Of a stretch of 64,000 bases of DNA, positions 15,326 through 61,317 are shown piece by piece. The notes beneath the pieces were generated by a model, which saw nothing but the letters and a program-made list of their open reading frames with translations, had not been told where the DNA came from and searched no databases. A program made the position numbers and the translations under genes. Position 1 is the first letter of the stretch. The number at the start of each line of letters is the position of its first letter. Source of the stretch: Glandiceps talaboti (lineage: Eukaryota; Hemichordata; Enteropneusta; Spengelidae); assembly GCF_964340395.1 (NCBI RefSeq), contig NC_135559.1, forward strand, positions 1,037,501 to 1,101,500. The letters are read 5' to 3'.

Positions 15326-17441
15326 TTAGTGACATTGGATTGAAATTAATGTCTTAAAGTCGTCAATTTTGGGTGTCCCATTTCTCATGACTCATCCAAC
15401 GCGACGTTTTAATTCTGGAATCTGACAAATAAATCAACTTGGCTGCAGATTGGATGAGACAAAAATGACAACATCACTCACTTTGTATAATGTATAAAAG
15501 ATGGCACCACCACAAGTGCATCTGTAAGAGAAAATTAGCATTTTAAGACTGAAACTTGGGACATTTAATCAAATTATTGGTTTCTCACAATGATCAACTT
15601 ACTTTGTACTAATACAGCTGGTTCTTTTCCACCACCAAATGCTAACATCTTTCTTCTGTAATCTTCACCAACACTTCTGTCCAGTGGGTTGCTATAGAAA
15701 CACTGTTGCCATATCAATGAAGCAACAGCTCTTGATAAAAGATAACTGTAATACTTAGCACCATAGCCAACTAAATGACCAAATCTCAATTGCCACGCCT
15801 GAGTTGAAAAGAAGGTATAATTGGACAAATTAAATTTTATTATAAATGTATTCTAAAATCAACCCAGGGTGTAATGTGTAATTTGACAATGACATTAAAA
15901 GTATACACCCTGGAGTGAAATGGGTCAGTGGTAACGGTATTACATGTACAATAAATATCTTTGTTATACATAATATCTATTTTAGTACATTGTAGTCAAT
16001 GTTTTTACGAAGGTTGGCGAACCCTGGTAACAGAAAGTTGGAATATGGTAAAACTGGTAGAGTTTCCAATACATTATATGACAATTTTGGTGAGGAACCC
16101 TGGTAAAATGACAGGGGAACTCAGGTAGATTTTACCTACATAATACTGCCCTTAACAAAAACACTGGTAGAGAACCCTGGTAAAATGACAGGGGAACTCA
16201 GGTAGATTTTACCTATTTACCACCCTTAACAAAAACACTGGTAGGGAACCCTGGTAAAATGACAGGGGAACTCAGGTAGATTTTACCTACATAATACTGC
16301 CCTTAATAAAAAACACTGGGATGGAACCCTGGTAAAATGACAGGGGAACTCAGGTAGATTTTACCTACTAATACCACCCTTAACAAAAACACTGGTAGGG
16401 AACCCTGGTAAAATGACAGGGGAACTCAGGTAGATTTTACCTACTAATACCACCCTTAACAAAAACACTGGTAGGGAACCCTGGTAAAATGACAGGGGAA
16501 CTCAGGTAGATTTTACCTACTTACCACCCTTAACAAAATCACTGGTAGAGAACCCTAGTAAAATGACAGGGGTACTCAGGTAGATTTTACCTACTTAATA
16601 CTGCCCTTAATAAAAAACACTGGTAGTACACCCTGATGATGGTGACTAGCTGTTGTTGAAAAAAAAAAGATGAAAATCGGTATTCTAAATAATTTTCTGA
16701 TTCACATGAATTGCATTATTTTATGACTATACTACTTACTGTTCCAGGTATATATGGTAAACAACTGTATTTATTTTGAATGTCTGCTAGGAGGTCAGTT
16801 GTTGTCTGCAAGAAAAAAGCAATTTATTTGACAATAAAACTATGGAAAATGTGGTATAGGCAATTACAATAGACACAAACTAAAACTAGTGTTGTTGTTT
16901 GTGAGATCAAAGTAATGCCTTGTTAATGTGGATACAATAATAATAATAATAATGTTGGGTTCTTATATAGCGCTTTCCCACTCCGTGCTCAAAGCGTTTT
17001 ACAATTATTACCCCTGGCTCGGATAAGAACGGCACAACGGCCCTTTAGTCTTCCTCAACTCCCCGGGGAGCATACAATCCATTGCAGCCGTTTAAGCGCA
17101 TAGGATTAAAGCCTTCACATTGCAACCTACATCCTACCAGGTCCCCAATTATACAGCTGGGTTGACTGAGGCACAGTCATGGTTCAAATCTTGCCCAAGG
17201 ACTTAAGCCACTCAGAAACAAACAGCAGGCAGCGCCGGGGATCGAACCTGCAACCTGTAGATTCCAAGCCGGTCACGCTAACCATTCACCCATCATGACT
17301 CCACAATCAAGGTAATAATAAGGTAATTGGTTATTTGATAACCATTTTGCTGTTACAGTAACAGTTTGATTATTCTCACTTGTCATGGAACAGTCCAATC
17401 ACCATTGTGTGTTTATTAGCGTTATTATTAATGTAAATATC

Positions 17442-17482
<41 letters not shown>

Positions 17483-20400
17483 TCTCTTTAGTAGTTTCTG
17501 ATTTTGTACGTAGTGTTATTAAATGTGAACAACTTAAGTCACCACAGTTTGATATGTAATTGACACTCTGGAAAATCGAGTGGCTAGGCTCAATTAGTTT
17601 TATCAAAACTATTTTCAAGTCTTTCACTCACAATTTTAAATCATTTCTTTTTTTTTGGATGTTAATGTTTACTTGTTATTTGTATGGTTATCTCTTTTAA
17701 CTCTTTTGTGGAAAATAAATTTTAATTCAATTCAATTCAATTCAATTCAATTCAATTCAATAACACACTAGACAAAGTGTTGGCTTACCTTGTTTAAGGG
17801 ATGTTCACCATGGTATAATTGATCCAATATTGAATAGTAAACTTGTTGTTGCATTTCACAAGCTGAAAATAATTTCTTGGCAGCACATAGCTTTGTAATC
17901 ATTTCTTCAGGCAGTGTCTACACAGAATGAACAGAAGATTATAATTACTCACTACAGTACGATGAAAATAAAAAACTATCGGCAAACTGAGATAGACCAA
18001 AGTAAAAAAAGTTGTTGTTGAATACTGTTGTTTAAATGACTCATTACTTCAACTTATATACATATAGGAGCTATTGCACATAACTACATACCTCTCCTGT
18101 TTGGTAATGTTTAGCAAATTGACGTAGCACCCGATAATCACTTGCAAAATATTCCATTAGGACTGACGGTACTTCTGCAAAGTCAGTTGAACATCGTGTT
18201 CCAGTAACATGTTGATATGTAGTTCTTGCTAACATGGCTGTAAACATAGAGAATAAACAACAGAGATGAAATATTTAAATTTATATGCATCTAAATTATC
18301 AATGTCTGCTGTTTGTTTATTAACATAAGTCATTCTAACATAAGTGTGGAAGTTGTGCAACCCTAAGGTACACAGTCCGACTTTTAATTCTACATCAAGC
18401 AAAATTATGTGACCTCGGCAAGTACCCTATGTGTTGCATGACTACAATCTTGTCTGTTACCTAGGCTACAAAACAATACATGTATATACATTACTTGTTT
18501 TCACCTAAAGAAATTCTCATGTATGTGTTCTATGGACCAGATTACAATCTGTATATACTTCTAGTTACTTACAATGCATAGCATGACCCATTTCATGAAA
18601 TAAGTTTTCCATCATCTGTAACAAAGAGAAAGGTGAATTGTGTAGTTCAGAAATAGCCTGGTTTAACATTTGACCTTGAAAGTCAAAGACAAGGTCATTT
18701 GCATATTGTTAACAAAAACTTCCATCAAGACTGTAAAGTATTCTATGCTGGGGCACCCTCATCCATCGACCAACACCTTTGAAGACTGTTGAGGGCAGAG
18801 AGACATGTTCAACCAAGACGTTAATTTTGTCCTACATTTTTAGAGTTTTTGAGATGTGACACAAATAATATATTTTTTTGTCAAAAATGGCCAGTACTGA
18901 AAGAAATATTCTGAAGTCATAAAACAATCATCTACATATGCTTATTATTAAAGGGTTGTGATGAGACAGACACAGGGACACACACACTGAATAAATCCTT
19001 TCATGTTGTGGCATTAGAGCTGAAGTCAGCTAATCAAACACTTTGGGCAGGATATCTTTGAAACAACACTTTGAAAAATGTAAAGACAAGTCTCAAAATT
19101 CAGTGTCAATTGCAAATGAATGTTGGCTTACCGAATGTGTTAGAAGTGATGGCGTCGTTGATGTTGGAGGTCTGTGGCAAATAATAGAATTTGTAGATGA
19201 TAAATATTAAGCAACGTTTGTATGAAGTTATAGTAACAAGTACATGTAAGTGTTTATAATACTACGTCAGCAATACAATTTGTTCAAAATGTACACAACA
19301 TCATTTAAGTCCATCCCAATATATGCTATTGGTATCATGTATGCTAGCAACATATTGTACATATGTGGCAAATGAATACATTGTATGCATTATAGAATTG
19401 ATATTATACTTCTGACACCATACTTTCCAATATGGGGGGGGGGGGGGGGGGTACAAACTGAATATTGTATTTTACAACTGTGATTCATATGACTATCTAT
19501 TTTGAGAGGGAAGTGCTGGAAGCATCTCATATACATTAACAAGAATCCTGCTTGATCAGAGATGGAGGGTGGTACTAACTACCTGACATCTAGTCATTTG
19601 TTGTGACCCTGTCACATCCAGTCCTATTCTGTTATTCTGCCCTCTAGTGGCAGTGAGTGAACAAGACTAGATATTCCGGTCAAAAGGTTTAGGTAATGAT
19701 TTTATTATTGTAGTTATGTGAAATCCTAAAAACAAATTTCAGAACAGTAATCTAATGTTATGACTGAAAATACTCATCACATCCAGTCCTAATCTGTTAT
19801 TCTGCCCTCTAGTGGCAGTGAGTGAACAAGACTCAAGATTCCAGTCAAAAGGTTTAGGTAATGATTTCATTATTGTAGTTATGCGAAATCATAAAAACTG
19901 AAAATACTTACGGAAAGCTACACATGAGAACAACTACTGGTAATTGATATGAACCATCATCAAGACATCTACCACCACGAATTGTAAAATGACAATCCTG
20001 CTGTGATTTACCACATCTTTCAAAGAAATCACAATAAATGTAGCCCAGAACTCCCTCAGTTTCATGGACAACGGCCTGGAAGAAGATAATATTTCTCAGT
20101 ATCTTGTTTACATGACAACAATGGTAATGAAGATGGTAATGCTATAACTTACACCATCTTATTGACCAAGTTCAAATTAGGATTAAGACAAACATCTTTT
20201 GAGCAGGACTTTAGAAAACACTGAGCTACAATGAAAGGAATAATCCTATTCTACCCACTGATAAGATAGCACTTTAAAAACCTGGGATTGAATTATGGGT
20301 CTTTAAGTAATGCAAATAGCATCGTAGGCTGCCTGTCTGTTGTCTGTCTGTCAGAAAGTGCATCCTTCCGCAGCCGTTTCTTGGAGATGCCTAGACCGAT

Positions 20401-21097
20401 TTTTTTCAAACTTGGTACAGGGGCAACATACTAGGGATACATATGCACATCAATTTGTATGGGTATGGTTGATATAATCCAATATGGCCGCCTAGCAGCC
20501 ATTTTGTTTGCGAATTTTCCATCTCCAAAGCCATAAGTGAGACATGCTTGAACATATTGGAAAAAAAGTCAAACATTGTAAATAATTCATGCAAATCTGA
20601 TATGAAAATATTAACATCGAAATGACTTTTACATAATTTATCTCAATATCTGAACCTAAGTAACACACTTTATCAGTATACATGTACATACCACTTTTTT
20701 GACATCTGGAGCCCAAATCTCTCCAGGTTTAGTTTCCTCATCTAAGAGTTGAATTCCATATAAACTTGTAAATATGAGACTAAGACCGTCCATACAGGTA
20801 CCCAGTGAAAAATATGGTGCATAGTGTGTGGAATTTAAGTCACATCTGAAATAATGATATCATGGAAACACAAAACTAAATGCAAAGTTCATTTGAAAAA
20901 CATTTGAGACGAGGACTGTTACTGGGACAAATCAAAGTACTTACTGGCTAGACAGGGAAAATATTGACTTTTTATGAAAGCACAGTAATATATTTCATTG
21001 TATTTTTCTGGACATATTTCTACACTTACTTTTATATGAATCTTCAAATAGTATGTATGTATTTAATGAAGCAAAATTTTGTTTTCCTCTTTTCATG

Positions 21098-21155
<58 letters not shown>

Positions 21156-21254
21156 ACACACACAGACACTGTACTACATGTTTATGCACATACACATACA
21201 GAGGCAGACAGACAGACAGACAGACAGGCAGACAGACAGGCAGACAGACAGACT

Positions 21255-21314
<60 letters not shown>

Positions 21315-23553
21315 CAAACAGCTGGCCCATATGCATACATATATACTCCCACACACAATACATCCCTACACACATAATAAAAACTCACATTTGGTGTCTT
21401 GCCAGGCCAGCATAATACGGTAGATCCCACGCCTTGATTTCCTGAAAGTGATTACATAACCAAGTATGTATGTTTTCAGGTAATGGATACTTGACACATC
21501 ACTGATTGGGTAATGTTATTTATGGAATAATTATAATAAAAGGTGGATGTAGTACAATATTGCTTAGGTTTTTTTTCAATAGATCAGCTGAGGGCTGTTA
21601 TGCAGCAACTATTTCCTACGGTTGAAACTTGAGGGAAGAAGCTGCTACATCACAGCACGCTTTGATATCTTATAAAAAGACATACCATATCACATACATG
21701 TACAATGTATTCTAAGTCAATCACTCATGACTGAAAAAAATCAGTGTATTATAACACAATTCATTGAATTCTCAGTGATTAATGTTTTTTTACCACAATA
21801 TTGATGATGCCCACACCTAGCAGCAAATATTAACTTGTAAATCGTTTGAGTAATCATTAAGTAATCTTAGACTAGTATTACTTACCGGTGTTGTACTGTT
21901 ATACTTTCTCTTAACTGCCTTTAACTGGGACAATTCTTCGAAGGCTCTAAAAATATATAATTTAAAAACATGTCAAATCAAAGCTAAGATATAAAACCAC
22001 TGCAGTCATCCTAATTACACACACACCATGCTACAAATGCCTAGTCAGGATGCTTACAGTATATCCCATGATTGCAGGGTGGGTCTATAGTGGCATGCTT
22101 CTCACCATTGCTTCCTAGCATACATTCCAGGTACTTGGATCAGCATTCAAGCTCATATTGTCAAACACCACTCTCAAATTAAACACATGTTCAGCCATTT
22201 TACATGAGAAAGCTGAGTACACCCATTCAAAATCAAAGACCATGTGACTGAAACACTGGGGTTTAAGACTCTTCTTGGTCAGTTAATTCATTGAATGACT
22301 CACCTGTCATTGATGCGACTTGCTGTCATTTCAAGGAATTCCATAACATATGTTCGATTCCTGGCTAGAGAAGACTTCAAGGCTCTATCTGCATAGGTAG
22401 GATATCCTACTAAGTTAGCTAGTTTATGTCTGGCTGTCAGCAAATTATCTAGTAATCCCTCCTGATGGTGGTTAGGATAGAGGAACACCTTGTAGGCTAT
22501 TTCCCTTACCTGTAATCATTTATAGAGAGATTAATGTCAAGTGTAATGTGAGGTAAATGTAAAAGTCTGTTATTGTATATGTACGTACAATAACAAATTT
22601 TTTACACTTTTGAAATGTATTGAGTTACAAACAAGGACTTGGTATATGTTATTTTCACATTGTTTTTTTCAAGTAGAAAAACATAGTAAAGTTTCAAAAT
22701 AATTCTCATCCATATGGCCACTTAAAGTAGCTAATTTTCTTTTGAGTTCTACCTTCTTATTTCATCCTAAAATGTACTCTAGTACTCACTACATGATGGG
22801 TACAAGGCAATGATATAATTCCTCGTTTAGTTTTATATACTCTCTGCCTTACATCTATATGTACATTACAATATATAGACATGATGTTGGCAATTGACCC
22901 AGAGGTCAAGTTCAAGTTGAGTGCTGTCCACAGAAAGTTTTTACTCTATGTTATCATATGGTACTGTAATGTATGTGATTATGCACTCATGTTTCATCAT
23001 TCCAAACAAAGGGGCAACATCATATGTGATGATAGAAACTCACAATATCATTTAGTGAGTCTGTATAAACTTACAATATCATTCGGGGAGTCTGTATAAA
23101 GTCCATTAACTTTAATTGTATCACCCTCCATAATAAAGGAATTTCGTATATGTTCTGGAAGTAGTTCTCTTCGGATAACATTGGCCATTTGAGTTCCTTG
23201 CATGAATTCACTTCCATATTTTAGTATATCACCATTCAGCTTAACCACTTTTCTCCTCTTGAAACATGAAATGTGAGATTGATTGATTGATTGATTGATT
23301 GATTGAGTTACTACAGATGTCTACACTTCGAACAATCTTCTCTCTTTGAAAGGGAACATTCAACAAGTCCCACAAGTTCTGTAAGAACAGTTTAATGTTT
23401 CGGCAGGAGGAAACCAACGGAAAAAGTGCATAATTGTTTGGTAGATTCAAACTGAATGACAATCCTCTTACTGTAGTGTAGCAAGGCTGGGTTTAAACTC
23501 CTTCTGTAGTTGTGAGAAGCAAATGGTTTAACAACTCAGCTATCAACAACAAA

Positions 23554-23634
<81 letters not shown>

Positions 23635-25836
23635 CACACAGGGTATCTACATGTGTAATCTCACCTTTCCAGCACTCAGGTGAATACCACTTTGTTCAAA
23701 GTCAAACATAAAGAGTTCAGCCACTCGTCTAGATTCACTGTCCATTGTTTGTAAGACATGGTCATCATTCAATAGATCCCTGAGAGAGTTGTGAAGTTCT
23801 TTGTTTGTATTTAATCTGGAAAACAAGTGGTACAATTATCCAAAAATACATTTAAAAATTGGGATATTGATAAAACAAACATCACATCACTTTGATAAAT
23901 ATAGTCTGTTTAGACCAGGAATAAAACCAAACCAAACCAGACCAGACTGAACCAAGCCTGACTAGACTTGACTAGTCCAGATTTGAATAGACTATTCTAC
24001 ACTCTGTCACAAGTATACAACAGATAGGACCTTGTTGCACTGATGCGACAACTATACAATTAAAAAATATTGCTGTCTTTCTTTTTCTTTTAAGTTTTAA
24101 ACTGCTTTATGTTGTTTGAATTAGAATGGAATTTAAATGACCACTGTGTCAAATATGGAGAGTAGTAATCAAGATAAAAAATTGGATCATGGTTCAAGCA
24201 AAGATAAAAATAATATAAGTTTGAATTGAACAGCTAGATTGCATTTTATCTACGTCAAATGGATCTCTTCTCAGCTAAAATTTAGTTCCACTTACTTTTC
24301 TACCATATTACCAACTGTAAAACATGCTTCTTCTGCAGCTTCTATATACTCACTTTTAGGATGTGCCACTCGAATAAAGTCAGCCTGCAAAGAAATTGTT
24401 AGTTAACTATCTTTATCTCCATTTATCATACATACATTTACATGTTCTATGGGTGAGTACAATTTACATTCATTAACCTTAATATTCACGAGGTGAACTT
24501 TTTTTTCAAAAAAAGCCAATTTCTGGAAGCAATCAAATACGTAGTTATCATATATGCATATGCAAACAACAGAATTGATGAAATACATACATGGTTGAGA
24601 TTACATTTCTTCTGCAGTTTTATACCAACCATTTTAGTAAAGTGAAGCTCCGAGGGCTGTGAGAGAGTCTACTGAACAAACTTTACAACGCCAACACAAA
24701 GGTAATATCACAACTACTGATCGACTACTTACCAAATCAGCCACCCTGCATAGTGCATCAGACAACTTGTCAAACACTGTTACTACTTTAGGTGATGTTG
24801 GCATGTTTATCGCTATGGCAACCAACTCATCAACCTCCCTGAGACAATTTTCTTGAGCTACTTTGAAACCATTTGGTTCATTTAATTGTTGTACACCAAA
24901 TAATCCCTGAAAGAAAATTTAACAGAGTCCCATCATAAAATTATAAATATGGCCATCTGAACATTCCCTAATCATGAGGTTGATAGCATGGGAAATGTCT
25001 TCAGAAATACAAAATGTATGTACCTTCACAGCATCAGAATAAAGGCAATTGGCTGGCTGGATAATTGTGACTGGAAATCCCTAACAATGGGTCTGATTTT
25101 TGGATTATATTCATTGTATATGGGTAGATGTGAACTTGAGGCTCCATACACCTGAACCTTGTGAGAGTACCCCCCCCCCCCCACCCCATTACTGATCTGT
25201 TTAATACATGTATATGTAACTCTTTAACACCCCTTTCCAGTACTTTAGTTTACACTGCACTTTTTATAGTCTAAGACAATTATTTTTATTCTAGTCTTCT
25301 CCATTTCGGTCGTCCTTTTGCCTGCTACTTTTTACTGGCCGTTTAAGTGGACTTTATTTTTTTTTTCATTTTACTTTTGTCAATAAATATATTCTATCTC
25401 TGCATAGACTTGTTTTGTTTACAAATTTTACACGCCACATTTAGTATGTCATTTTATTTTAGATTCCTAAGGAATAAGAGTGAAACGTGGAATGACTTTT
25501 TTATTTGTCCATTTGAGCCTAAAGTGACTTGTTTTTTCCACTAAACTATTGTACATGTTATGTAACACTGTCTACTATACCTCCACTCCAGTTTGAAGGT
25601 CGACTGTAAGCTGGGCTAGATTGTTTTGTAGAAGTTAAACTCACCGTATTTGAGCCATTTCTCTCGTCTTTAGTGTCCAATTTAGCATTAAATGCTGACG
25701 CTAACGGCGACCATGTTGTCACTTTTCTCCCGTTATTAAGCGGACACAAAATGTGCCCACGAATGTTAGTCCTACTTCTGTAAGCGATCATCGTTCTGAG
25801 AGAGAACATGTTTGATTTCAATAACACACGACGCAT
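15326..25836 (-). CDS. MIPEP: Mitochondrial intermediate peptidase (M3 metallopeptidase)
   Basis: This matrix zinc peptidase removes an octapeptide from presequence-processed imports. Exons in transcript order: 25645-25836, 24733-24906, 24296-24384, 23665-23815, 23075-23257, 22304-22509, 21886-21946, 21389-21441, 20692-20845, 19912-20075, 19132-19171, 18573-18615, 18092-18237, 17789-17917, 16740-16805, 15603-15798, 15326-15390. All phases agree, giving about 703 residues against 713 in human. The start is the ATG at 25834-25836, opening an Arg-rich, acid-free presequence. Landmarks are [31 protein letters not shown], the zinc site HEMGH (residues 496-500), the downstream Glu in TDFAEVPS (about 525), and [18 protein letters not shown]. 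The last exon is uncertain: it aligns without gaps to the family C-terminus (TPKIDDF versus human CPSVDDF), but its acceptor is weak. The gene is divergent from the TatD gene. Confidence 0.93.
16075..16640. repeat. About 77-bp minisatellite in a MIPEP intron
   Basis: At least seven copies share GGGAACCCTGGTAAAATGAC, CAGGTAGATTTTACCT and CCCTTAACAAAAACACTGG. They lie between the two penultimate MIPEP exons. Confidence 0.85.
16936..17310 (-). mobile_element. tRNA-derived SINE, apparently near full length
   Basis: On the minus strand the head has a box A-like TGGGTGAATGG (about 17283-17293) and a box B-like GGTTCGATCCC (about 17240-17250) at tRNA spacing. A body of about 270 bp follows and ends at an (ATT)n tail at 16938-16955. 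Box spacing, order and tail fit a Pol III-transcribed SINE inserted in a MIPEP intron. The family is not named. Confidence 0.7.
17442..17480. repeat. (TTG)n microsatellite
   Basis: An uninterrupted TTG/GTT run inside a MIPEP intron. Confidence 0.9.
17723..17761. repeat. (AATTC)n microsatellite
   Basis: Seven to eight pure copies of AATTC in a MIPEP intron. Confidence 0.9.
19613..19905. repeat. Direct duplication in a MIPEP intron
   Basis: The segments starting near 19613 and 19779 share about 120 bp, including CTGCCCTCTAGTGGCAGTGA and AGGTTTAGGTAATGATTT, with few differences. Confidence 0.75.
20322..20560. repeat. Possible interspersed repeat in a MIPEP intron
   Basis: The block reads like a dispersed non-coding repeat (GTCTGTC start, GATTTTTTTCAAACTTGGTA, ATGGCCGCCTAGCAGCCATT). 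I have no second copy in this window, so the call is tentative. Confidence 0.3.
21099..21313. repeat. Compound (CA)n-(CAGA)n microsatellite
   Basis: A (CA)n run is followed by a long (CAGA)n run with a few variant units. It lies in a MIPEP intron about 75 bp from the 53-nt exon 8. Confidence 0.9.
23041..23100. repeat. Duplicated 5' splice site of MIPEP exon 5
   Basis: A direct repeat of about 30 bp contains the end of exon 5 and its donor. The proximal donor is GTAAGT and the duplicated one is GTGAGT. Use of the second would add codons that run into a stop (TGA). Confidence 0.7.
23276..23307. repeat. (TTGA)n microsatellite
   Basis: About seven copies immediately upstream (in transcript sense) of the MIPEP exon 5 acceptor. 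Confidence 0.88.
23562..23630. repeat. (CA)n microsatellite
   Basis: A nearly pure CA run close to the MIPEP exon 4 donor. Confidence 0.92.
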
Positions 25837-27905
25837 TGTATAAATTTGGCAGAGGCTTTCAATACTCGTTTTTCGGTACAATTTGAACAAAAAGGCCGGA
25901 GATTCATTTAAATCATCTGATCCACTTTTCCAACTCTGACACAAATTGGTGTAATTCGAGTTATGTTGCCGTTCTTTCGCTGTTATTCTTACGAATCAAG
26001 TTACAGTGCATGAGCGCGGCCATTTTCTTTCACAGGTGTCTTCTGGGATCGTAATGTTTACATCTCGTGATATTTTTCTTGTCGGCATTTTCGAATAGTC
26101 ACCCAAAATGACCAACTATAAACTATTTTAATATGTTGACTAAACAGACGACGTCTATTACAAAGGCGCTGTTTGTATTCAAGGAAATACCCACGGATTT
26201 TTTTTATATGATAGGTCAAAGGTCAATAAGTTAAGGTGGTCACCTTAGTTCACAAGTTCACATCATATATCTCGCTTGGCAGAGGGATTTCAAAAGACGG
26301 TAAGAATAATACGAATCAGATTCAATTACTGAAATAGTTATGACGATGTTGGTTGACTAATTCACTTGTTCACCAAGAAGCTATTTCAGTTCAACATTCA
26401 ATTGAATTAATATTCAATTATTATATTATTTGACATATATCATGTATATTATGCAACGTAACTTATAGCCTATAGGATGATGACGTGCATACTGGTCACG
26501 AAGTCCGTATCGGATACATTCGGCTGTGACCGGACCACGTTCGAGAAACACACGTGCGCTACTGCCCATCAACTTTCACCCAATACAGTTACCCCCGGGG
26601 TAGCTAGGCTCTGAATTGAGCGCATTCCAGAGGATAAAAGCACATTTTCAGTGTTTGTACACAGTGGGTAAGTGTTCCCCGTATTTCTGTAGAATAATGA
26701 TTGTATTGATTCAATGAACTTCAGAAATGAGACCCCCTCTTCCTACACTGTCACTGATAAATTGGCTGTGGCCCATGCATGATGAACAAATATTACATTT
26801 TCGGCGTGAAATAAAGATGTCGTTTTAAGGTATAGAAAAGTTCGTCTTTCCATAATTTTTATAAAAATGTGTGTAAGCCAGACTAACTTTTAATTAATGT
26901 TAAAAGGACACAGACTGATACGAGTTTATACATTTTGGAGCGAAATTTATGCTGTAAGCGTAAATTGAAATATTATAAACTTACTGTTTTCTAATTAGTC
27001 ATTTTAATAATTAATTGCAGTTTGCAGAACTCAAACCTAGTATTCTAGAAATAATACATGAATGATTTGATGATAGATTTTATTCTACGTAACGTATACT
27101 AACAGGTTTTGGAACTGTTATGCCAACAACTCCAAAACATGAATCTTAATCCTCATTCTGCCAAGACTCTAGAGGGTATTTATTTGTACACAAAAAAAAA
27201 AACCTACAATAGTACAAGTTGAGAAAAACAGGACATTGAAGATATGCATCGACATTGTACCATGTACAAGCCAAGTTTGATAAAAGGAATTTATACCCTA
27301 GTCAATCTACATAACAACAACACTTGTCTACATCATTGGTTCTGCTGTGTTCGAAATATGTGACTTAAAACATTCCAAATTGCCATCATTTTCTCCAATT
27401 TTTCTTTGCTATTACTGGCACTGGTATAATTAAATTATTCCCCAATATTTTTCTTCATTCAGCCAGAAAATACTTGTGACCTAAGGGTTTTGTCAGTACA
27501 AGTCTAGCAACTTCGATCACGTGTATTTTCCTTGCATTGGTTGAATGAATTACGAAGAAAATATTGGGGAACAATAATTATAATGGTATGATTTTAGTAA
27601 TGTAAGTATTTTCACTCGTCACATAGAGTATAAAGTCAGTTTGGGTACCTGTTTAAAAACACTAAAATTATACATAACTGGAATTAAAGGCTACTAGCCT
27701 GTTCACTGCATTGGTATGGTACAGTGAAGTGGTAAACAGTTAATATTACAATAGTAGTATTTTCTGCAATGTGGATATTAAAGGCTAGTAATAACTGAAA
27801 CTAAACTTGTTCTGTCAACAGCTGATGTATAATATACATTTCTTGTCTGTTATTAACAGGAATTCTCTGTCGTCAAGGTTACATAAGACTTTGGAAAACC
27901 AGACA
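25837..27905. promoter_or_regulatory. Divergent intergenic region, MIPEP / TatD-like gene
   Basis: About 2 kb separates the two start codons. At 26009-26024 the sequence GCGGCCATTTTC (minus strand GAAAATGGCCGC) resembles a YY1 site, a common initiator element of nuclear genes for mitochondrial proteins. It lies where a MIPEP 5' UTR would begin. A GTAAGT-like donor near 26668 and acceptors near 27823 and 27859 could frame a 5' UTR intron of the TatD-like gene. All of this is inference from motifs. Confidence 0.35.
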
Positions 27906-30900
27906 ATGTCAAAGGTAAAGATTAATGCATGTCATTATAGGGATTTGCTGTACCTTCCACAAGTAGACCAAAGTATGGCAGATGCCATAATGTTGTACAG
28001 GGAGATCTATGGCACTTTATCCCTGGACATTGTGGCTAATATTCCTGGTATGAAGATAACAAAGAACTTTGTAGATGCTGTTGACTTCTCACCAAAAATA
28101 TCAAGTACAAGACCAACTGACACTTGCCACAAGGAAAACAAGTTAGCCAAACCAACCAATGCTAGTCACAAGTTAGCCAAACCAACCAATGCTAGTCACA
28201 AGTTAGCCAAACCAACCAATGCTAGTCACACAGAAGACAAGTTAGCCAAACCAACCAATGCTAGTCACACAGAAGACAAGTTAGCCAAACCAACCAATGC
28301 TAGTCACACAGAAGACAAGTTATCTAAACCAACCAATGCTAGTCATAGAGAAGAAGGCAAGTTAGCTAAATCAGCCAATGCTTGTCACAGAGAAGACAAG
28401 TTAGCTAAACCAACCAGTGCTAGTCACAAGTTAGCCAAACCAACCAATGCTAGTCACGGAGAAGACAAGTTATCTAAACCAACCAGTGCTAGTCACAAGT
28501 TAGCCAAACCAACCAATGCTAGTCACAGAGAAGTCAAGTTAGCTAAATCAATCAGTGCTAGTCACAAGTTAGCTAAACCAACCAATGGTAGTCACAGAGA
28601 AGACAAGTTAGCTAAATCAATCAATGCTAGTCACAGAGAAGAAGGCAAGTTAGCTAAACCAACCAATGGTAGTCACAGAGAAGACAAGTTATCTAAACCA
28701 ACCAATGCTAGACACAGAGAAGACAAGTTAGCTAAATCAATCAATGCTTGTCACAAGTTAGCTAAACCAACCAATGCTAGTCACAGAGAAGGCAAGTTAG
28801 CTAAACCAACCAGTGCTAGTCACAAGTTAGCTAAACCAACCAATGGTAGTCACAGAGAAGACAAGTTAGCTAAATCAATCAATGCTAGTCACAGAGAAGA
28901 AGGCAAGTTAGCTAAACCAACCAATGGTAGTCACGGAGAAGACAAGTTATCTAAACCAACCAATGGTAGTCACAGAGAAGACAAGTTATCTAAACCAACC
29001 AATGCTAGTCACAGAGAAGAAAAGTTAGCTAAATCAATCAATGCTAGTCACAGAGAAGAAGGCAAGTTAGCTAAACCAACCAATGGTAGTCACAGAGAAG
29101 ACAAGTTATCTAAACCAACCAATGCTAGTCACAGAGAAGAAAAGTTAGCTAAATCAATCAATGCTAGTCACAGAGAAGAAGGCAAGTTAGCTAAACCAAT
29201 CAATGGTAGTCACAGAGAAGACAAGTTAGCTAAACCAACCAATGGTAGTCACAGAGAAGACAAGTTATCTAAACAAACCAGTGCTAGTCACAAGTTAGCC
29301 AAACCAACCAATGCTAGTCACAGAGAAGACAAGTTATCTAAACCAACCAGTGCTAGTCACAAGTTAGCCAAACCAACCAATGCTAGTCACAGAGAAGACA
29401 AGTTATCTAAACCAACCAATGCTAGTCACAGAGAAGACAAGTTACGAGTAGCTAAACCAACCAATGCTAGTCTAGGACAAAACAGCAAGTTAGCTAAACC
29501 TACCCACACGTACCATGGAGTAAACAATAAATCAGCTAAATATACCAACATCGGTCACAGAGAAAATAAGTTATCTAAACCTACTAATACTTGTCACAGA
29601 GAAAACGGCATGTCCACTTCTGGTAATTCTAACACTTGTCCTGCACAAGACCATAAGTTCTCAACACTGACCCCACAGAAAAAAAGACCCAAAGTGGTTC
29701 CTTGTGATGAAGAATCTACACAGGAGAATGGAAAGAACACAACTGATCAATTATCAAAACTAGTGGATACCATAGATAGTATATTTGATGCTATACTACC
29801 TCCACAGAAAATTGATGATGGTGAGAAAACAAAGAGATCTTCAACCTCTCAATTGGAGGATGACGGCAGAGAAACAAGATTATCGGCAGGTCAGTTTAGT
29901 GATAGTGTCACACTTAAAGAAATGACAAGACCTCCAGCCTTTCAGTTTGGGAAAGATGGAGTTGCAGAAAAGATAGCAGATTTTGTTCCAAAACAAGATG
30001 GGAACATTTCCAGTGATATTATTTGCAAAAAATGGCAGTCAGAGATTCAGAGGAAACAAGAACTTGTTGATTCAAGTATTGCACTCTATCCATCACCAGG
30101 GCAACAACACCAGCAACAACTACTACAACACCAACGTTCAACATACCAACTACTACAAGTACCACCAGTGCCACATAGTTTCATACAGCAAGGAGATCCA
30201 TATGCATTATTACCACCCTCTTATCCTCTCTACATGTCTTTCAGAGATGAACCATCTAATAACCCCCAACCACAGCAACAGTCTACTTTCAGAGGTGAAC
30301 CACCTAATAACCCCCAACCACGGCAACTGTCTACTTTCAGAGGTGAACCACCTAATAACCCCCAACCACAACAGCTGTCTACTTTCAGAGGTGAACCACG
30401 TAATGACCCCCAACCACAGCAACTCTCTACTTTCAGAGATGAACCATCGAATAACCCCCAACCACAGCAACAGTCTACTTTCAGAGATGAACCACCTAAT
30501 AACCCCCAACCACAGCAACTGTCTACTTTCACAGGTGAACCACCTAATAACCCCCAACCACAGCAACTGTCTACTTTCATAAAAGATCACGTACCGAAAT
30601 ACTTGAAGCCTTATCATACTTCACAAAGGCATGGTGTAGTTGATCATGTAACATTGCCAACAGAAAACTTGGCTCCACTAGTTTCAGAAATTAGAGTGCC
30701 AGCAAGTTATGTAGCCACAATGAAGTCATGTACAGTTTTATCTGGAAGACAAAAAACAACCGAAAAGTCATCATTTACAGGTAAAAATGAAACAAATGTA
30801 GTTACTATAGAAAGTGGACCTACACAAACAACAATATTGCAAGATGTGCTGCCATATGCAATTGACACACACTTTTACCTACATCGAACACGAGCTGAAT

Positions 30901-31676
30901 TGTGGGGAGAAGACTCTATGGCAACATCTGATGACTTAGTTGCATTTACTCCATCACCTGGACCAACTACAAGAGTCAAGGAAATAGGAGGAGTAGAGAT
31001 ATATTCTGACCCAGATCGTTATCCTACTAATTTATCAAGATTCCAAAGCTATTGGAAAATAGCTGTTGGTGTACATCCAAGCAAGGTACACACATTTTCT
31101 TTAGAGAAATTTCACCAACTCAAACGTCTTGTGTTATCCCCACAAACAGCAGCACTTGGAGAGGTTGGACTAGATAGAACTGGGCCTTTCTCTTCTTGGC
31201 ATGAACAGGATAACATGTTAATAAATGTCCTGCAGTTGTGCTCGGTGCATAAGCCTCTGATTCTGTATGTCCGTGGTATCCATGGAGACAACTATGGTTC
31301 TGATGCGAGAAGCGCACTGTTTCGTATTGTAAAGCAGCGCTGCAGTCGTTTACAGCCAATACATCTACACAATTTCACTGGATTTTCAGAGCAAGTGAAA
31401 GAGTGGCTGCAGGCATTCCCAATCTGTTACTTTGGATTTACTGGTGAGGTGACAGACTTTGATTCAGGACAGTTGAAAGCGTTGCGGACAGTTCCACTTA
31501 ATCGTCTGTTGATTGAGACTAATTCACCCTACCTCTCTGTACATGGCAATGTGTGGACCAACACACCAGCTTACATAGGAGACATTGCAGAAAGAGTAGC
31601 CAAGGCTTTAGAGATGACTACAGCACAAGTGCTGGATGCCACAGTTCGCAATGCCATATACCTCTATCAATTTTAG
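27906..31676 (+). CDS. HhH-TatD fusion protein with a long basic repeat region (TATDN2-like)
   Basis: Single-exon coding region of 1,256 codons. I chose the ATG at 27906 because it opens the first domain; an ATG at 27825 would add 27 residues. Residues 1-60 form a ComEA-type helix-hairpin-helix (INACHYRDLLYLPQVD, AIMLYREIYG, NIPGMK), a DNA-binding fold. Residues about 77-570 are roughly 36 units of KLAKPTNASH with optional RED/REEG spacers, then decaying units. Residues about 777-892 are seven 16-residue units containing NNPQPQQ. Residues about 985-1256 match the TatD hydrolase core: DTHFYLH, ALGEVGLD, HLHNFTG, ETNSPYL. Canonical TatD has DxHxH, an HxR histidine and ETD. Here the second H is Y, the HxR histidine is Y (LILYVRG) and the ETD aspartate is N, so metal binding may be lost or changed. 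Closest known relatives by domain are TATDN2 proteins. Confidence 0.85.
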   Translation: MSKVKINACHYRDLLYLPQVDQSMADAIMLYREIYGTLSLDIVANIPGMKITKNFVDAVDFSPKISSTRPTDTCHKENKLAKPTNASHKLAKPTNASHKLAKPTNASHTEDKLAKPTNASHTEDKLAKPTNASHTEDKLSKPTNASHREEGKLAKSANACHREDKLAKPTSASHKLAKPTNASHGEDKLSKPTSASHKLAKPTNASHREVKLAKSISASHKLAKPTNGSHREDKLAKSINASHREEGKLAKPTNGSHREDKLSKPTNARHREDKLAKSINACHKLAKPTNASHREGKLAKPTSASHKLAKPTNGSHREDKLAKSINASHREEGKLAKPTNGSHGEDKLSKPTNGSHREDKLSKPTNASHREEKLAKSINASHREEGKLAKPTNGSHREDKLSKPTNASHREEKLAKSINASHREEGKLAKPINGSHREDKLAKPTNGSHREDKLSKQTSASHKLAKPTNASHREDKLSKPTSASHKLAKPTNASHREDKLSKPTNASHREDKLRVAKPTNASLGQNSKLAKPTHTYHGVNNKSAKYTNIGHRENKLSKPTNTCHRENGMSTSGNSNTCPAQDHKFSTLTPQKKRPKVVPCDEESTQENGKNTTDQLSKLVDTIDSIFDAILPPQKIDDGEKTKRSSTSQLEDDGRETRLSAGQFSDSVTLKEMTRPPAFQFGKDGVAEKIADFVPKQDGNISSDIICKKWQSEIQRKQELVDSSIALYPSPGQQHQQQLLQHQRSTYQLLQVPPVPHSFIQQGDPYALLPPSYPLYMSFRDEPSNNPQPQQQSTFRGEPPNNPQPRQLSTFRGEPPNNPQPQQLSTFRGEPRNDPQPQQLSTFRDEPSNNPQPQQQSTFRDEPPNNPQPQQLSTFTGEPPNNPQPQQLSTFIKDHVPKYLKPYHTSQRHGVVDHVTLPTENLAPLVSEIRVPASYVATMKSCTVLSGRQKTTEKSSFTGKNETNVVTIESGPTQTTILQDVLPYAIDTHFYLHRTRAELWGEDSMATSDDLVAFTPSPGPTTRVKEIGGVEIYSDPDRYPTNLSRFQSYWKIAVGVHPSKVHTFSLEKFHQLKRLVLSPQTAALGEVGLDRTGPFSSWHEQDNMLINVLQLCSVHKPLILYVRGIHGDNYGSDARSALFRIVKQRCSRLQPIHLHNFTGFSEQVKEWLQAFPICYFGFTGEVTDFDSGQLKALRTVPLNRLLIETNSPYLSVHGNVWTNTPAYIGDIAERVAKALEMTTAQVLDATVRNAIYLYQF
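28120..29620 (+). repeat. Coding tandem repeat, KLAKPTNASH type
   Basis: Units of 30, 39 or 42 nt, always multiples of three, keep the frame open through about 36 copies. Spacer types (none, RED, REEG, TED) recur in blocks, which points to higher-order unequal exchange. The last few units (after about 29455) are diverged. Confidence 0.95.
30236..30580 (+). repeat. Coding 48-bp tandem repeat, seven units
   Basis: Seven 16-codon units of the form STFRGEPPNNPQPQQL lie between the basic repeat region and the TatD domain. The complementary frames are also open because the unit is a multiple of three. Confidence 0.95.
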
Positions 31677-33117: not shown

Positions 33118-33913
33118 CTGCTCTGCTCTGCTTTGTTTTGTCTCAGACCACGTTTTGTTTGTGTGTCTGCTTTGTTTTGTCTCAGACCACTAAAAATAGG
33201 TTTTGTTTGTGTGTCTGCTGTGTGTTGTATTTGTGTGATTAGGTTTGTGTGTGTGTGTGTCTGCTCTGCTCTGCTTTGTGTATCTGCTTAGCTTTGTCTG
33301 TGTGTGTGTATCTGCTTAGCTTTGTGCTGTTTTTAAACGACTGAAATTATTAAATCTAGTTGTCCATTTCAGTGTGATAATTCTAGGAATGGGTGTGTAG
33401 ACAGGTTATGGCTCTCAGCAAGATGATCTAACCTTTGAATGAAATGTTATGGTAAAAATGTATGCTTTAGTAAAAAGAAGTGATGTTATAAGTGAATTAG
33501 TCTAAAAATCTGATATTTTTGCCAAACTTTTCCCCACTCCCGCCCCCCATTCCAAATCTTGGCAAGGGACCATTTGGTTTGACTCATGACAATGGCCCAT
33601 TAGCACAACCCAGTCAGACTATGCTCAGAAGACCAGTATAAATGTGGGATTTCCTTTGACTAGTGGCAGAAATTTCCATGTGTTATAATTAGTACTTGAT
33701 ATGAATCATCATTGTTGACATCAAAAGTGACTGTGTCTGTCTGTGTCTGTCTGTCTGTCTGTCTGTCTGTGTGCTGAAGGGGGGATTCTTCCAATTCAAT
33801 GAACAATGTAGACCTGTGAAATATTTTGCTTATTATGCCAGATATTTTTCTTATCCCATAATATACATTACCTTTTCTCTTGGTTAATAGTTATATGACC
33901 ATTTTGATTGGAG
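31677..33913. other. TatD-gene 3' UTR and GT-rich repeats
   Basis: No coding exon was recognised. AATAAA at 32922-32927 is the likely polyadenylation signal of the TatD-like gene. From 32950 to 33310 two diverged copies of a GT/TCTG-rich unit carry CTCAGACCACTAAAAATAGG, and a (TGTC)n run lies at 33728-33770. No FHA-like exon for the following aprataxin gene was seen here. Confidence 0.55.
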
Positions 33914-36331
33914 ATGCCTAAAATCACAGGAAAGAAACGCAAGGATTTTAGTGATTCTGAGGATGAAGAGATGGCAAACACATATGGAAATGTAGAGAAG
34001 AAACGCAGGGACTTCAGTGATTCTGAGGATGAAGAGACACAACACACAACTACAAAAGTTGAAAAGAAACGCAGGGACTTCAGTGATTCTGAGGACGAAG
34101 AGACACAACACACAACTACAAAAGTTGAAAAGAAACGCAGGGACTTCAGTGATTCTGAGGATGAAGAAATACACACCCCTGAAAAAGTAGAAAAGAAACG
34201 CAGGGACTTCAGTGATTCTGAGGATGAAGAGAAACAACACACCCCTGAAAAAGTAGAAAAGAAACGCAGGGACTTCAGTGATTCTGAGGACGAAGAGACA
34301 CAACACACAACTACAAAAGTTGAAAAGAAACGCAGGGACTTCAGTGATTCTGAGGATGAAGAAATACACACCCCTGAAAAAGTAGAAAAGAAACGCAGGG
34401 ACTTCAGTGATTCTGAGGATGAAGAGAAACAACACACAACTACAAAAGTTGAAAAGAAACGCAGGGACTTCAGTGATTCTGAGGATGAAGAGAAACAACA
34501 CACAACTACAAAAGTTGAAAAGAAACGCAGGGACTTCAGTGATTCTGAGGATGAAGAGAAACAACACACAACTACAAAAGATGAAAAGAAACGCAGGGAC
34601 TTCAGTGATTCTGAGGATGAAGAGAAACAACACACAACTACAAAAGATGAAAAGAAACGCAGGGACTTCAGTGATTCTGAGGATGAATCAGCATCTAGCA
34701 GTCATACAAGAGTTCCAAGCAAACCACCAATTAGGAAAGGCCACTGGAGTATGGGATTATTGGATTCAATGCATGATCCAACCTATCAGATTGATAAAGA
34801 TGACAAAATGATTATTATCAAGGATAAATACCCCAAGGTTAGTACATTGTCTCACTACATGTATGTCATGGGTACAGTAGTCCCCTCACTATGTCATGGG
34901 TAAAGTGACCCCTCACTCTGTCATGTCACTAACTAAGTTTTCATTCTAATCTGACCAGTAAAGTGTCTAAGTCGTAAAGTGGTACAGTGAGTCTGAAACT
35001 CATCAGATCCAATTTTGGATTTTATTCAGTGTGCAAAAAAACACAGTACACATGAAAACTTGTTCAGAAACAAATCTGAGTTGACAGTGTGATACTGATA
35101 GTCTAGAGCTAATGGTGGTTATTTATTTGTTATTCAAATTTATTGGTATCTAAGGCCAAAGAAAAAAAATTGTGTGGCTCCGATAACGGCCAATTTCAAA
35201 ACAGGGTGGGGTAGGGAATTTTTATTTTTTATTTTAGTTTATTATATTTCTTTATCTGGTTCAGGTTGTTCCAATGTACATGTACGTAGAGGTCAACAGA
35301 GATTTGTCATCGATGTGTTTGCACTTTCCGTATGATGTATGGACGACATTGTGTGCTACACTGTATTCTGCCATGTTCTTTTAAATTTTGTATTTTCAAT
35401 ATATTTGTCAATGTAGCTAAAATATAGTTTAGGGTCGGCAGTAAAAAAATGGGTTAGGTCGGGTTACCGGAACCAAACAATTAATTTCTATTGGCCTAAA
35501 AGAAATGTCATCATACTATCATTTTCACAATATACAAGAATATCTTACTTGAATTCTTGGTACTTTTATGATATAACTCTTGATATTACTCTAATTTCAG
35601 GCAAAACATCATTACCTGGTTCTACCAAGAGTAAGCATTCCAAGTTTAAAAAGTTTAAAACCCAACAATTTGGGTCTCCTGAAACACCTACATATGAAAG
35701 GAGAGGAATTGATTAAGAAGTAAGTGAATTATTCAATAAAGTCTGTACAATGTCATGTACATCTCATCTTAAATTTGCCAAATTGGAAATTGGAAAACCA
35801 GTAAAGTCCTATCAAATGATACATTCATAAGGTAACAGTAAGTACATACGTAACTTAGAGACAAGCTAAAACTATTTATATAAGCTATTAAATGGATGTT
35901 GGTTTAATCGTAGTCAATGTTGAAATACCACTTTTCCTATATAGTGCAGATATACAGCTAAGTAAAAAGCTATTAATATGGGAAATACACATTCAAATTT
36001 ATTTTATATTGACATATAAAGAAGACAATTAATTTTAATTAAACACACAGTATGATGATGTTTGTGATGACTTCCTGATCTTGCAGTGTCCATTTGTGGG
36101 CTTTGAGTGTTTACACTATCTTGATTACAAGGTGATTATATCCATACAACGATGCCACTGCTACTACCCACTTGTGTAATCTACCACATTGAACAAAAAT
36201 AGTTTTAGTTAACAGAAAGCTTAGTTTCTACAGTTCATGTAGTAAGAACTAAGATACTGTATGCATGTATGATGTACCATACCATGGCTAAATATAAATC
36301 AGTTGGTGCTATAAGTTATAGGTTGTTGTTC

Positions 36332-36373
<42 letters not shown>

Positions 36374-37974
36374 CAAACTTTATTCTACACCACATACACT
36401 AGCATAGAGTTGTGGTGTGTTACAAGTTTAGAAAAATAAATTGCATACAATAGAGCTATTACAAGAAAGTATACAAAATTAAACTAAATCAACTCAGCAG
36501 ATAGATAGAAAAATGTCAATGCATGATGTAGACAACACAGGTTTACAAATACTGTTCATGTTTATCAAAATCTGAACTTTTTTTCTATGAGAATGGTTGA
36601 AAGATGATCAACTCAATTATCTTGTATTCAATTAATACTCAAAATTCTAAAATTGTTTTGATATCTGACCGTCCCATAAATAATTTTGTCAATTTAGACT
36701 CTCTTTTATTCACACAATGCCTATCTCATAAATTGCTCATTTCAATTTTATATACACCCTACTCCTAAAATATCAGTAATATTCCTCAAAAAGTTTACTC
36801 ACATAATAACATGATTTAACAATCTATTTTGTTGACTTGTAGACATAAATCGTCAGGGTTACAGTTTAGGCTTGGATACCACTGTGTTCCTAGTATGAGG
36901 TGAGTACTCCCCCTTTACTTGCCACTTTGTCAAATTAACACAGAGAAGAAGAAAATGCACTTTATTTGGGTGATAACAAAGCTATATCATGTTACCTGCA
37001 CTTTCCAACTCATTGAATTCACTCAATCCATCGTCATTATTGTAATGCATTATCTAAATAACAAAGGTCTGTCCATATATGTCTATCCAATATTGAGATG
37101 AACATCTTGAACTATTACATCAATGTTGCAGTGGTGTTAAGTTTCTTGTATCACTCAAAAGTAGTCAGTCATTTTTAGACAAGTATTCTGATAATTTTGT
37201 ACTGTTAACGTTAGATTTGGTACTCAGATGTCAGTATTATAACTTATTAAACTTGGGACCTTCATTGATGAAATGGGACAAGAAGACTGGGAGATTACTT
37301 TTTGTATAATTTATTTTATTAATTTTGCTATACCGTCATATAAAATATCTAGAGATTACCTTTTGTATTTTTATTAATTTTGCAGTCATTTACATCTACA
37401 TGTGATAAGTCAGGATTTCAATTCACCATGCTTGAAAACAAAGAAACATTGGAACTCTTTTACAACCAAATATTTTGTGGAATCAGCTGGTAAGTTTTAA
37501 ATGTTTCGTTACCATGGGGATCAATCATCATATTTGGCTTTGACTAATTACTTTTAAATTAGTCTCTCTGGTTCCATGTAGTCTATAATCCTGCCATAAT
37601 CTACAGATATATTGATAAGTGTCAAACTTATCTTCGTAGATATAATACAACAATTAGAGAAGACAGGTAAGGTAAACCCTCCAGCAGCTGGACAACACAA
37701 AGAACTGTTACAAACTCCTTTGAGGTATGTACTATGCTTGTTATCTTATTGATTATCAAAACCTTATTATGTTCAATGGTGTTAAAAAAAGTTCACCAAT
37801 ATATAATATAATGATGTTAGTTTTTATGTAGTGTTAGCAACCATGAATATACCCTTAGCAAGTGAAATATTCTCAATTTTATCCGTTTTTTTCTGTAGAT
37901 GTCACGTGTGTAAACAACCTCAGAAGAACATGCCAACTTTAAAGCAACATATAATACGACACACAGGAAGTTAA
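33914..37974 (+). CDS. APTX: Aprataxin-like DNA adenylate hydrolase, FHA replaced by acidic repeats
   Basis: In the family, aprataxin removes 5'-AMP from abortive ligation ends and acts in the nucleus and mitochondria. Exons: 33914-34837, 35601-35719, 36843-36899, 37386-37489, 37640-37724, 37899-37974. Phases agree and give 454 residues. An in-frame TGA two codons upstream of the ATG supports this start. Residues about 6-257 are 12 repeats ([13 protein letters not shown] plus an 8-9 residue linker). Residues about 275-405 are the HIT domain: [44 protein letters not shown] and the histidine triad HLHLHVI (His 368, 370, 372). Residues 431-451 form the C-terminal zinc finger (C-x2-C-x12-H-x3-H). 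The catalytic motifs look intact. The N-terminal FHA domain of vertebrate aprataxin was not found. A missed upstream exon cannot be fully excluded. Confidence 0.9.
33930..34690 (+). repeat. Coding tandem repeat, 63/66-bp units, 12 copies
   Basis: Each unit encodes a basic KKRR cluster and the acidic serine motif FSDSEDEE, followed by linkers such as TQHTTTKVE or IHTPEKVE. The near-identity of units at DNA level indicates recent expansion or homogenisation. Confidence 0.96.
36334..36372. repeat. (ATCA)n microsatellite
   Basis: Pure tetranucleotide run in an aprataxin intron. Confidence 0.9.
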
Positions 37975-39995: not shown

Positions 39996-52382
<12,387 letters not shown>

Positions 52383-60411: not shown

Positions 60412-60697
60412 CCATGTCCATGAGTTTCAGGTGTAACCTGCCATTTTACCAATGTGTGACAGAGAATATGCTCTTAAAATTATATTATTACAAAACTAAA
60501 GGTATTAAAATTGGCACATATTGCTCTAATGTGCATAGTTGTTCGATCACCTGACATGGGGTTGCTAAATGAGAAGATACGACACGTGATCATTCCTGGA
60601 CCATCGCTTACTTATCGTGACATGTTTTTTTTATGAAATGAATTCACCAGATACGGTGGGTAAGAATATCTGATCTCTGACAACATCTCGCAGAAAC

Positions 60698-61269
60698 ATG
60701 ACTGAAGTAAGCCTAACCAAAACAGCATCCACACCGACATACAAGTTTAACGGTTACGCTGACAGTAAGAGTAGTAGGAAGATATTCGATCAGCATGCTA
60801 TCAAGCGATTCCGATTTCTAACGTCGTTCGTCCCAAATCTACGGAAAAGAAAGGAGGGAATGACATCATCAAAGAGAAGAACTACGAGAAACTCGAATTA
60901 TTCGAGACGTCGAAAGTGGAAAAAGAAAACAAAGACACGCCAGGAAAAAGTGGAGAGACAAGAGAGAGGAAAACGGGGCAAAGGAAACAAAATACTTAGA
61001 TCAGCTCGGTTAGAACATCGGGAAAAATCAGCGGCTTACACTAGCACCGAGGTACAAACAACAGATGAATACTTTGTGAACAATGAAACAACGAGACTCG
61101 GTGCGGATAACGATGGTAATGGTGTTAATTCACTGGTTGTGGTGACCAAAGACGGGTCTAATCATAGACAGTATCAAACTATGAGATCCAACTTCAAATT
61201 GAAAACATCTAATGAAGTAGATTCTGTTGATTTGTTACCCGAACTGATCAACAAAGAGGGGAGTAGCAC

Positions 61270-61317
<48 letters not shown>

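What the first reader, a model, noticed from the sequence alone, without database searches (positions are those of the whole stretch)
33914..34837. Aprataxin with a built-in array of predicted CK2 sites instead of an FHA domain
Seen: 12 units of [13 protein letters not shown] precede an intact HIT and zinc-finger aprataxin, and both serines in each unit fit the CK2 consensus S-x-x-E/D (about 24 sites). Known: vertebrate aprataxin uses an FHA domain to bind CK2-phosphorylated XRCC1/XRCC4, and its linker has a KRKR-x-x-SDS-like stretch. Inference: this lineage lost FHA and turned the protein into a phospho-ligand, which could recruit FHA proteins such as PNKP or make tunable multivalent nuclear contacts.
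Basis: partly seen in the sequence, partly recalled or inferred. Interest (0 to 1): 0.8.

Follow-up and report, generated by a model that had tools for sequence, protein, structure and literature searches.

The report
FHA-less aprataxin with charged repeat tail
In this animal genome the DNA-repair enzyme aprataxin has no partner-binding FHA domain and instead starts with a disordered tail of twelve near-identical units, each a basic nuclear-import-like patch followed by an acidic patch with two likely CK2 phosphorylation sites; what the tail does is untested.

Summary
Exon 1 (33914-34837) encodes 12 in-frame units KKR[R/K]DFSDSEDE[E/S] with 24 S-x-x-E sites; five more exons complete an intact aprataxin (98 of 174 aligned residues identical to the human catalytic domain). 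The window's own 590-Mb genome could be searched. Aprataxin and the array were found only at this locus, and the one APTX/PNKP-type FHA match over Pfam's cut-off belongs to PNKP. XRCC1 there keeps two YxxSTDE FHA-ligand motifs. So the parts of the CK2-XRCC1-FHA route exist in this species, but aprataxin is not tied to it by an FHA.

The proposed mechanism is weaker. FHA domains are described as phosphothreonine-specific, and the array's clusters are serine-only (0 of 12 SDT, 0 YxxSTDE). Loss of FHA, rather than never having had it, could not be tested: no other animal genome was available.

Best reading (0.4): a disordered tail of tandem NLS-plus-CK2 units, grown by 66-bp duplication, that keeps aprataxin in the nucleus and gives it weak, multivalent, CK2-tunable electrostatic contacts. 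Main rival: a mostly neutral coding minisatellite in which one NLS would do. New variant of a known kind; moderate interest.

The parts
33914..34837 (+). exon 1 of aprataxin: array, short linker and the first part of the HIT domain (308 codons)
   Evidence: ATG at 33914, donor GT at 34838
33932..34690 (+). array of 12 units; unit starts 33932, 33998, 34064, 34130, 34193, 34259, 34325, 34388, 34454, 34520, 34586, 34652
   Evidence: found nowhere else in the own genome
33896..33907 (+). two stop codons (TGA 33896-33898 and TGA 33905-33907) in frame just upstream of the ATG
33889..33913 (+). two candidate splice acceptors before the ATG: AG at 33889-33890 (13 of 16 pyrimidines) and AG at 33912-33913 (10 of 16, the same as exon 2's real acceptor); only the second could join an upstream coding exon in frame
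35601..35719 (+). exon 2 (HIT domain)
36843..36899 (+). exon 3 (HIT domain)
37386..37489 (+). exon 4: histidine triad HLHLH and [14 protein letters not shown]
37640..37724 (+). exon 5 (link to the zinc finger)
37899..37974 (+). exon 6: zinc finger C-x2-C-x12-H-x3-H and stop codon

Best explanation
A single-copy, catalytically intact aprataxin that has no FHA domain and carries a disordered N-terminal tail of 12 tandem units. Each unit is a monopartite-NLS-like basic patch (KKRR) followed at once by an acidic CK2-type patch (DFSDSEDEE). Shown: the array, the intact enzyme, absence of an FHA in the gene and of a second APTX/PNKP-type FHA over the cut-off in the genome, and presence of PNKP-FHA and of XRCC1 with FHA-ligand motifs. 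Inferred: the units grew by 66-bp duplications from one NLS+acidic motif, similar to the single RKRTISNSDDEDED in this animal's PNKP linker; CK2 phosphorylates the serines; the tail takes over the localising job that the FHA does in vertebrates, by redundant nuclear import plus many weak, charge-based contacts with chromatin or nucleolar proteins that phosphorylation tunes (not by FHA-phosphothreonine recognition).
For: 12 units, 24 S-x-x-E. Basic and acidic residues are more segregated than in shuffles of the same composition (kappa about 0.225 against 0.134; 1 of 2000 shuffles reaches it; residues 7-258). Between unit 1 and unit 2 the 39-nt core differs at 3 sites and the 27-nt spacer at 12 (Fisher p 7e-4; all 8 comparable units give 3-4 of 39 against 11-13 of 27); 4 of 5 variable core columns are synonymous where 15-24% is expected (p 0.0025-0.014). 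KKRMRK in the human PNKP linker is a tested NLS (PMC7514006, passages), and this genome's PNKP linker has a [KR]3..S.S[DE]3 motif of the same make. Precedents for tandem or alternating charged repeats giving localisation and condensation: Ki-67 repeats (PMC9106583, passages) and the treacle repeat domain (PMC11996177, passages). PNKP-FHA and XRCC1 YxxSTDE are present.
Against: No expression, phosphorylation or localisation data. The core's excess of synonymous variants is not significant against internal controls: core 3 synonymous: 1 non-synonymous against spacers 2:3 (p 0.36), spacers with unit 1 3:5 (p 0.27), TatD array one 4:10 (p 0.14), TatD array two 3:6 (p 0.22). On the 25-residue scale that the Ki-67 paper uses, the tail hardly alternates: 18 of 228 windows are net positive unphosphorylated and 0 of 228 with all 24 serines phosphorylated; alternation is seen only at 5-9 residues. 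The same paper says phosphorylation diminishes charge blocks in treacle, nucleolin and Nopp140. The locus is rich in minisatellites, coding and non-coding, so the array could be a by-product. One NLS would be enough for import.
Confidence: 0.4

Rival explanations
1. Mostly neutral coding minisatellite: a useful single NLS+acidic motif was tandemly copied by slippage or unequal exchange, and copy number has little function because the tail is disordered and tolerates it.
For: 68 tandem-repeat rows in the 64-kb window, among them two in the coding region of the neighbouring TatD gene; array units 2-11 differ at 0-2 of 39 core nt, so expansion is recent; a 3-unit block (period 195) repeats inside the array; synonymous excess not significant against controls.
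Against: Core conserved relative to spacer since unit 1 split off (p 7e-4); core variants are synonymous but one, K/R; spacer indels are in frame.
Confidence: 0.35
2. Histone or chromatin tether: each unit's aromatic-plus-acidic patch (DFSDSEDEE) works like the aromatic anchors of acidic histone-binding segments, as in APLF.
For: Phe invariant in 12 of 12 units, with a synonymous TTT/TTC change in unit 1. APLF, a member of the same FHA family, binds histones through an acidic domain with aromatic anchors and needs it to accumulate at damage (PMC9328677, passages).
Against: The anchors in APLF are Y, F and W at specific spacings and no such pattern was tested here; that paper's own sequence search found no clear candidates with the same octamer activity. 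The basic KKRR beside each patch would oppose histone binding.
Confidence: 0.08
3. Phospho-ligand array read by a phosphoserine reader such as the NBS1 BRCT pair (pS-D-pS in place of MDC1's pS-D-pT), so aprataxin is recruited like MDC1 recruits NBS1.
For: Twelve SDS, zero SDT. NBS1 BRCT1/2 is modelled with low pSer/pThr selectivity and binds MDC1 pS-D-pT (PMC8079451, passages). A nibrin BRCT match lies in this genome about 2 kb from an FHA match on the same strand.
Against: The model prefers hydrophobic residues at +3/+4; here these are E and D. No paper seen shows pS-D-pS binding.
Confidence: 0.06
4. One reading: CK2-phosphorylated units bind FHA domains, for example PNKP's.
For: PNKP with FHA is present; CK2 sites are dense; 9 T-x-x-[DE] sites exist in the spacers.
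Against: FHA described as phosphothreonine-specific with ligand YxxSTDE; 0 YxxSTDE, 0 ST[DE], 0 S[DE]T in this aprataxin against 2, 3 and 1 in this animal's XRCC1; the spacer threonines are followed by basic KKRR.
Confidence: 0.04
5. Target for inositol-pyrophosphate-driven serine pyrophosphorylation, giving a nutrient-sensitive nucleolar or chromatin tail.
For: Human pyrophosphosites sit in disordered acidic serine stretches with a CK2 consensus, most heavily in NOLC1 and TCOF1 (PMC11427299, passages); the units fit that description.
Against: Only a resemblance; no data for this species or for any aprataxin.
Confidence: 0.05

Closest known systems
Vertebrate aprataxin (human APTX; 4NDF catalytic, 3KT9 FHA)
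   Same: HIT plus zinc finger, 98 of 174 aligned residues identical; 17 of 18 checked positions identical, including the histidine triad and C-C-H-H; the exception is R199 to K310 (some residue numbers are recalled)
   Different: No FHA domain; a 253-residue tandem array (aa 7-259) in its place
S. pombe aprataxin-like protein (3SPD and others)
   Same: HIT-zinc finger match, residues 356-448; that fungal aprataxins lack an FHA is recalled, not tested
   Different: No such array in the aligned chain; far more diverged (E 1.2e-11)
MDC1 SDT repeats (NBS1 ligand)
   Same: Repeated acidic CK2-type S-D-[S/T] clusters in a disordered region of a repair protein
   Different: Thr in MDC1 (pS-D-pT), Ser here in 12 of 12; the units here each carry a basic patch; MDC1 is a scaffold, this is an enzyme
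Ki-67 and treacle repeat domains
   Same: Tandem disordered repeats pairing basic and acidic stretches, with phosphosites
   Different: Units are far shorter (22 aa) and, over 25 residues, net acidic rather than alternating
PNKP linker of the same genome
   Same: One RKRTISNSDDEDED motif: basic triplet, S-x-S, acidic run
   Different: Single copy, next to an FHA; no Phe

Membership tests
Aprataxin | HIT domain with histidine triad | tested here: met
   DcpS_C E 6.8e-30, HIT E 1.3e-10; H368/H370/H372 align to the human triad
Aprataxin | C-terminal zinc finger | tested here: met
   zf-C2HE E 5.9e-18; C431, C434, H447, H451 conserved
Aprataxin, vertebrate architecture | N-terminal FHA domain | tested here: not met
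   none in gene or window; only PNKP's PF17913 match passes the cut-off in the genome; no PF00498 match on contig C12
Aprataxin | removes 5'-AMP from aborted ligation ends | not testable with these tools
   activity inferred from conserved residues only
FHA-ligand array (XRCC1/XRCC4/MDC1 type) | phosphorylatable Thr in YxxSTDE or SDT context | tested here: not met
   0 YxxSTDE, 0 ST[DE], 0 S[DE]T in the whole aprataxin
FHA-ligand array (XRCC1/XRCC4/MDC1 type) | binds an FHA domain when phosphorylated | not testable with these tools
   needs binding assays
CK2 substrate | S/T-x-x-D/E consensus | tested here: met
   24 Ser and 9 Thr sites in residues 1-260; phosphorylation not shown
Charge-block (Ki-67-like) repeat domain | alternating basic and acidic blocks beyond chance | tested here: inconclusive
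   segregated beyond shuffles at blob size 5-6, alternation visible at 5-9 residues, nearly absent at 25
Disordered region | no stable fold | tested here: inconclusive
   AlphaFold of exon 1 as a single sequence: mean pLDDT 47.7, no helix, strands only in the HIT part; no alignment was given, which itself lowers confidence
APLF-type acidic histone-binding segment | aromatic anchors in an acidic segment that bind histones | not tested
   Phe in 12 of 12 units; anchor spacing and binding not examined

The most novel reading that the evidence does not exclude
In this lineage the logic of CK2 in strand-break repair is turned round for one partner: PNKP still reads CK2 marks on XRCC1 through its FHA, while aprataxin, having no FHA, carries the CK2 marks itself as a 12-fold serine array read by something other than an FHA (chromatin, nucleolar condensates or a BRCT pair), so that CK2 dials how strongly the enzyme is held at its sites and unit number sets the gain.
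Probability: 0.13. Interest if true: 0.7.

Novelty: new variant of a known kind. Interest (0 to 1): 0.42.

Why it matters
It would make the question 'what is the aprataxin FHA for' testable by comparison. If it is neutral, it is a clean case of how a short functional motif is inflated by minisatellite growth.

Tried and rejected
Upstream FHA exon: rejected as far as sequence goes. FHA profile and tblastn over six frames of the window gave only chance-level matches (best E 4.1 and 0.47). In the genome PF17913 gave one match over the cut-off, in PNKP, and one below it (E 0.65, C8:12324083, not followed up). The 14 PF00498 matches lie on other contigs; apart from the one near the nibrin BRCT match, their genes were not identified.

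Array as a dispersed repeat: rejected. DNA unit: 12 matches, all in this gene. Peptide unit: 8 matches at E up to 10, 7 in the array and one chance-level (E 3.5, C2).

Reverse-strand long ORFs over the array: rejected as by-products of a repeat whose length is a multiple of three.

Selection test with internal controls: tried, not significant. In the column count I left out the last codon of unit 12 (E to S), where the array ends; one search used only the first 12 codons of each unit; 24-nt spacers were left out of the spacer counts, and TatD units were picked by a motif pattern.

Relatives elsewhere: none in viral contigs (5 pattern matches, 0 confirmed) or prokaryote contigs (53, 0), as expected for an animal gene. 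No collection of animal genomes was on hand, so loss versus never gained stays open.

Papers: 10 searches. 14 papers were seen as search passages only, none whole. 'aprataxin' with 'tandem repeats' gave 14 papers, 10 listed; none of the listed titles and abstract beginnings describes such a tail. One search (MDC1 SDTD) found none.

Full report
What is there. Exon 1 runs 33914-34837 and five further exons end at 37974; joined, they give a 454-residue protein with GT-AG introns throughout. Residues 7-259 are 12 units of a 13-residue core, ten of them identical, separated by spacers of 8 or 9 residues. The rest is an aprataxin: E 7.1e-62 to the human catalytic domain, 98 of 174 aligned residues identical, and 17 of 18 checked positions the same, the exception being R199 to K. 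Pfam reports DcpS_C, zf-C2HE and HIT, and no FHA.

The 5' end. Two stop codons lie in frame 6 and 15 nt before the ATG. Any upstream coding exon would have to join exactly at 33914. That AG has 10 of 16 pyrimidines, no worse than the acceptor of exon 2, so splicing there is not excluded by sequence; an AG at 33889-33890 with 13 of 16 is the better-looking acceptor and would give a 5' leader with stops. No FHA-coding segment exists in the window to be joined: the profile's best match over 2790 segments is E 4.1, against 5 of 6 exons found by the catalytic control. The FHA query was confirmed as 3KT9.

The whole genome. G000 has 590 Mb in 47 contigs; the window lies on C12. The catalytic query gives 6 matches, all in this gene. 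PF17913, the APTX/PNKP-type FHA, gives one match over the cut-off (E 6.9e-14) on C8 and one below it (E 0.65). The first is PNKP: the FHA exon (E 8.3e-17) is followed on the same strand by PNK3P exons (E 2.4e-8 and 0.03), with two further FHA exons seen by tblastn. PF00498 gives 14 other FHA matches, none on C12; I did not name their genes except that one lies about 2 kb from a nibrin BRCT match. The array unit occurs 12 times, all here. The tool scores only its best candidates, so these absences hold at that sensitivity.

The XRCC1 side. XRCC1 on C26 is one open frame of 589 residues with XRCC1_N and BRCT domains. It carries two YGGSTDEE motifs, which fit the YxxSTDE core that aprataxin-family FHA domains bind (PMC4655838, passages).

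Why the FHA-ligand idea is weak. The same paper states that FHA domains specifically recognise phosphothreonine. The array has 12 SDS and no SDT, ST[DE] or YxxSTDE. Threonines with an acidic +3 do occur, 9 of them, but in the spacers. An NBS1 BRCT reading of pS-D-pS is not excluded (PMC8079451, passages), though the +3/+4 preference does not fit.

What the tail looks like physically. Over residues 7-258 there are 63 K/R and 87 D/E, net -24, or -72 with 24 phosphoserines. Basic and acidic residues are segregated beyond shuffles (1 of 2000 reaches the observed value). Alternation is strong over 5-9 residues but nearly vanishes over 25: 18 of 228 windows are net positive, and none when fully phosphorylated. 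This is a result against a simple Ki-67-like model, and phosphorylation could as well loosen as strengthen contacts. AlphaFold on exon 1 alone gives mean pLDDT 47.7 and no secondary structure in the array, weak evidence because no alignment was given.

Is the core under selection? Unit 1 differs from unit 2 at 3 of 39 core sites and 12 of 27 spacer sites (p 7e-4), and 4 of 5 variable core columns are synonymous (p 0.0025-0.014). Against internal controls the synonymous excess is not significant (p 0.14 to 0.36). Units 2-11 are nearly identical and a three-unit block is repeated (period 195), so the expansion is recent. Together this suggests, without proving, that the core sequence matters while the number of copies may not.

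Origin. This genome's PNKP linker has one RKRTISNSDDEDED motif, and the human PNKP linker has a tested NLS, KKRMRK (PMC7514006, passages). A single NLS+acidic motif is therefore a plausible seed for the array; this is inference.

Verdict. Observation confirmed and strengthened at genome scale; interpretation partly supported. I file it as an aprataxin of FHA-less architecture with a new tail, a new variant of a known kind. Loss of FHA in this lineage was not tested. That fungal aprataxins also lack an FHA is recalled, not tested here.

Noticed in passing
window 27807-31676 (+): Neighbouring open frame of 1289 aa with a TatD DNase domain (E 3.4e-31) and two coding arrays: about 37 units like KLAKPTNASH and at least 6 like TFRGEPPNNPQPQQLS. 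Resemblance to TATDN2 is recalled.
   Followed up: partly
G000:C26:9022834-9023271 (L020): XRCC1 appears as one uninterrupted 589-aa open frame with two YGGSTDEE motifs 50 residues apart; a second XRCC1_N-like gene with introns lies on C19 (L024), where no STDE-like motif was seen in the segments scanned.
   Followed up: partly
G000:C8:15935000-15943600 (L017): PNKP with an FHA in three exons and a linker carrying an NLS-plus-acidic-serine motif like one aprataxin unit.
   Followed up: yes
window 39999-50000 (-): Exons matching EFG_C and GTP_EFTU, probably a mitochondrial elongation factor G (name recalled).
   Followed up: no
window 15577-23835 (-): Exons matching Peptidase_M3, perhaps a mitochondrial intermediate peptidase (name recalled).
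   Followed up: no
window 59382-60411: GAGTA repeated 206 times without a mismatch.
   Followed up: no
window 60674-63175 (+): 833-aa open frame with a D/E run and probable membrane segments; no Pfam match at E 0.1.
   Followed up: no
G000:C8:12324083-12324166 (L016): Sub-threshold PF17913 match (E 0.65, 19.2 bits) with one stop inside; not examined.
   Followed up: no
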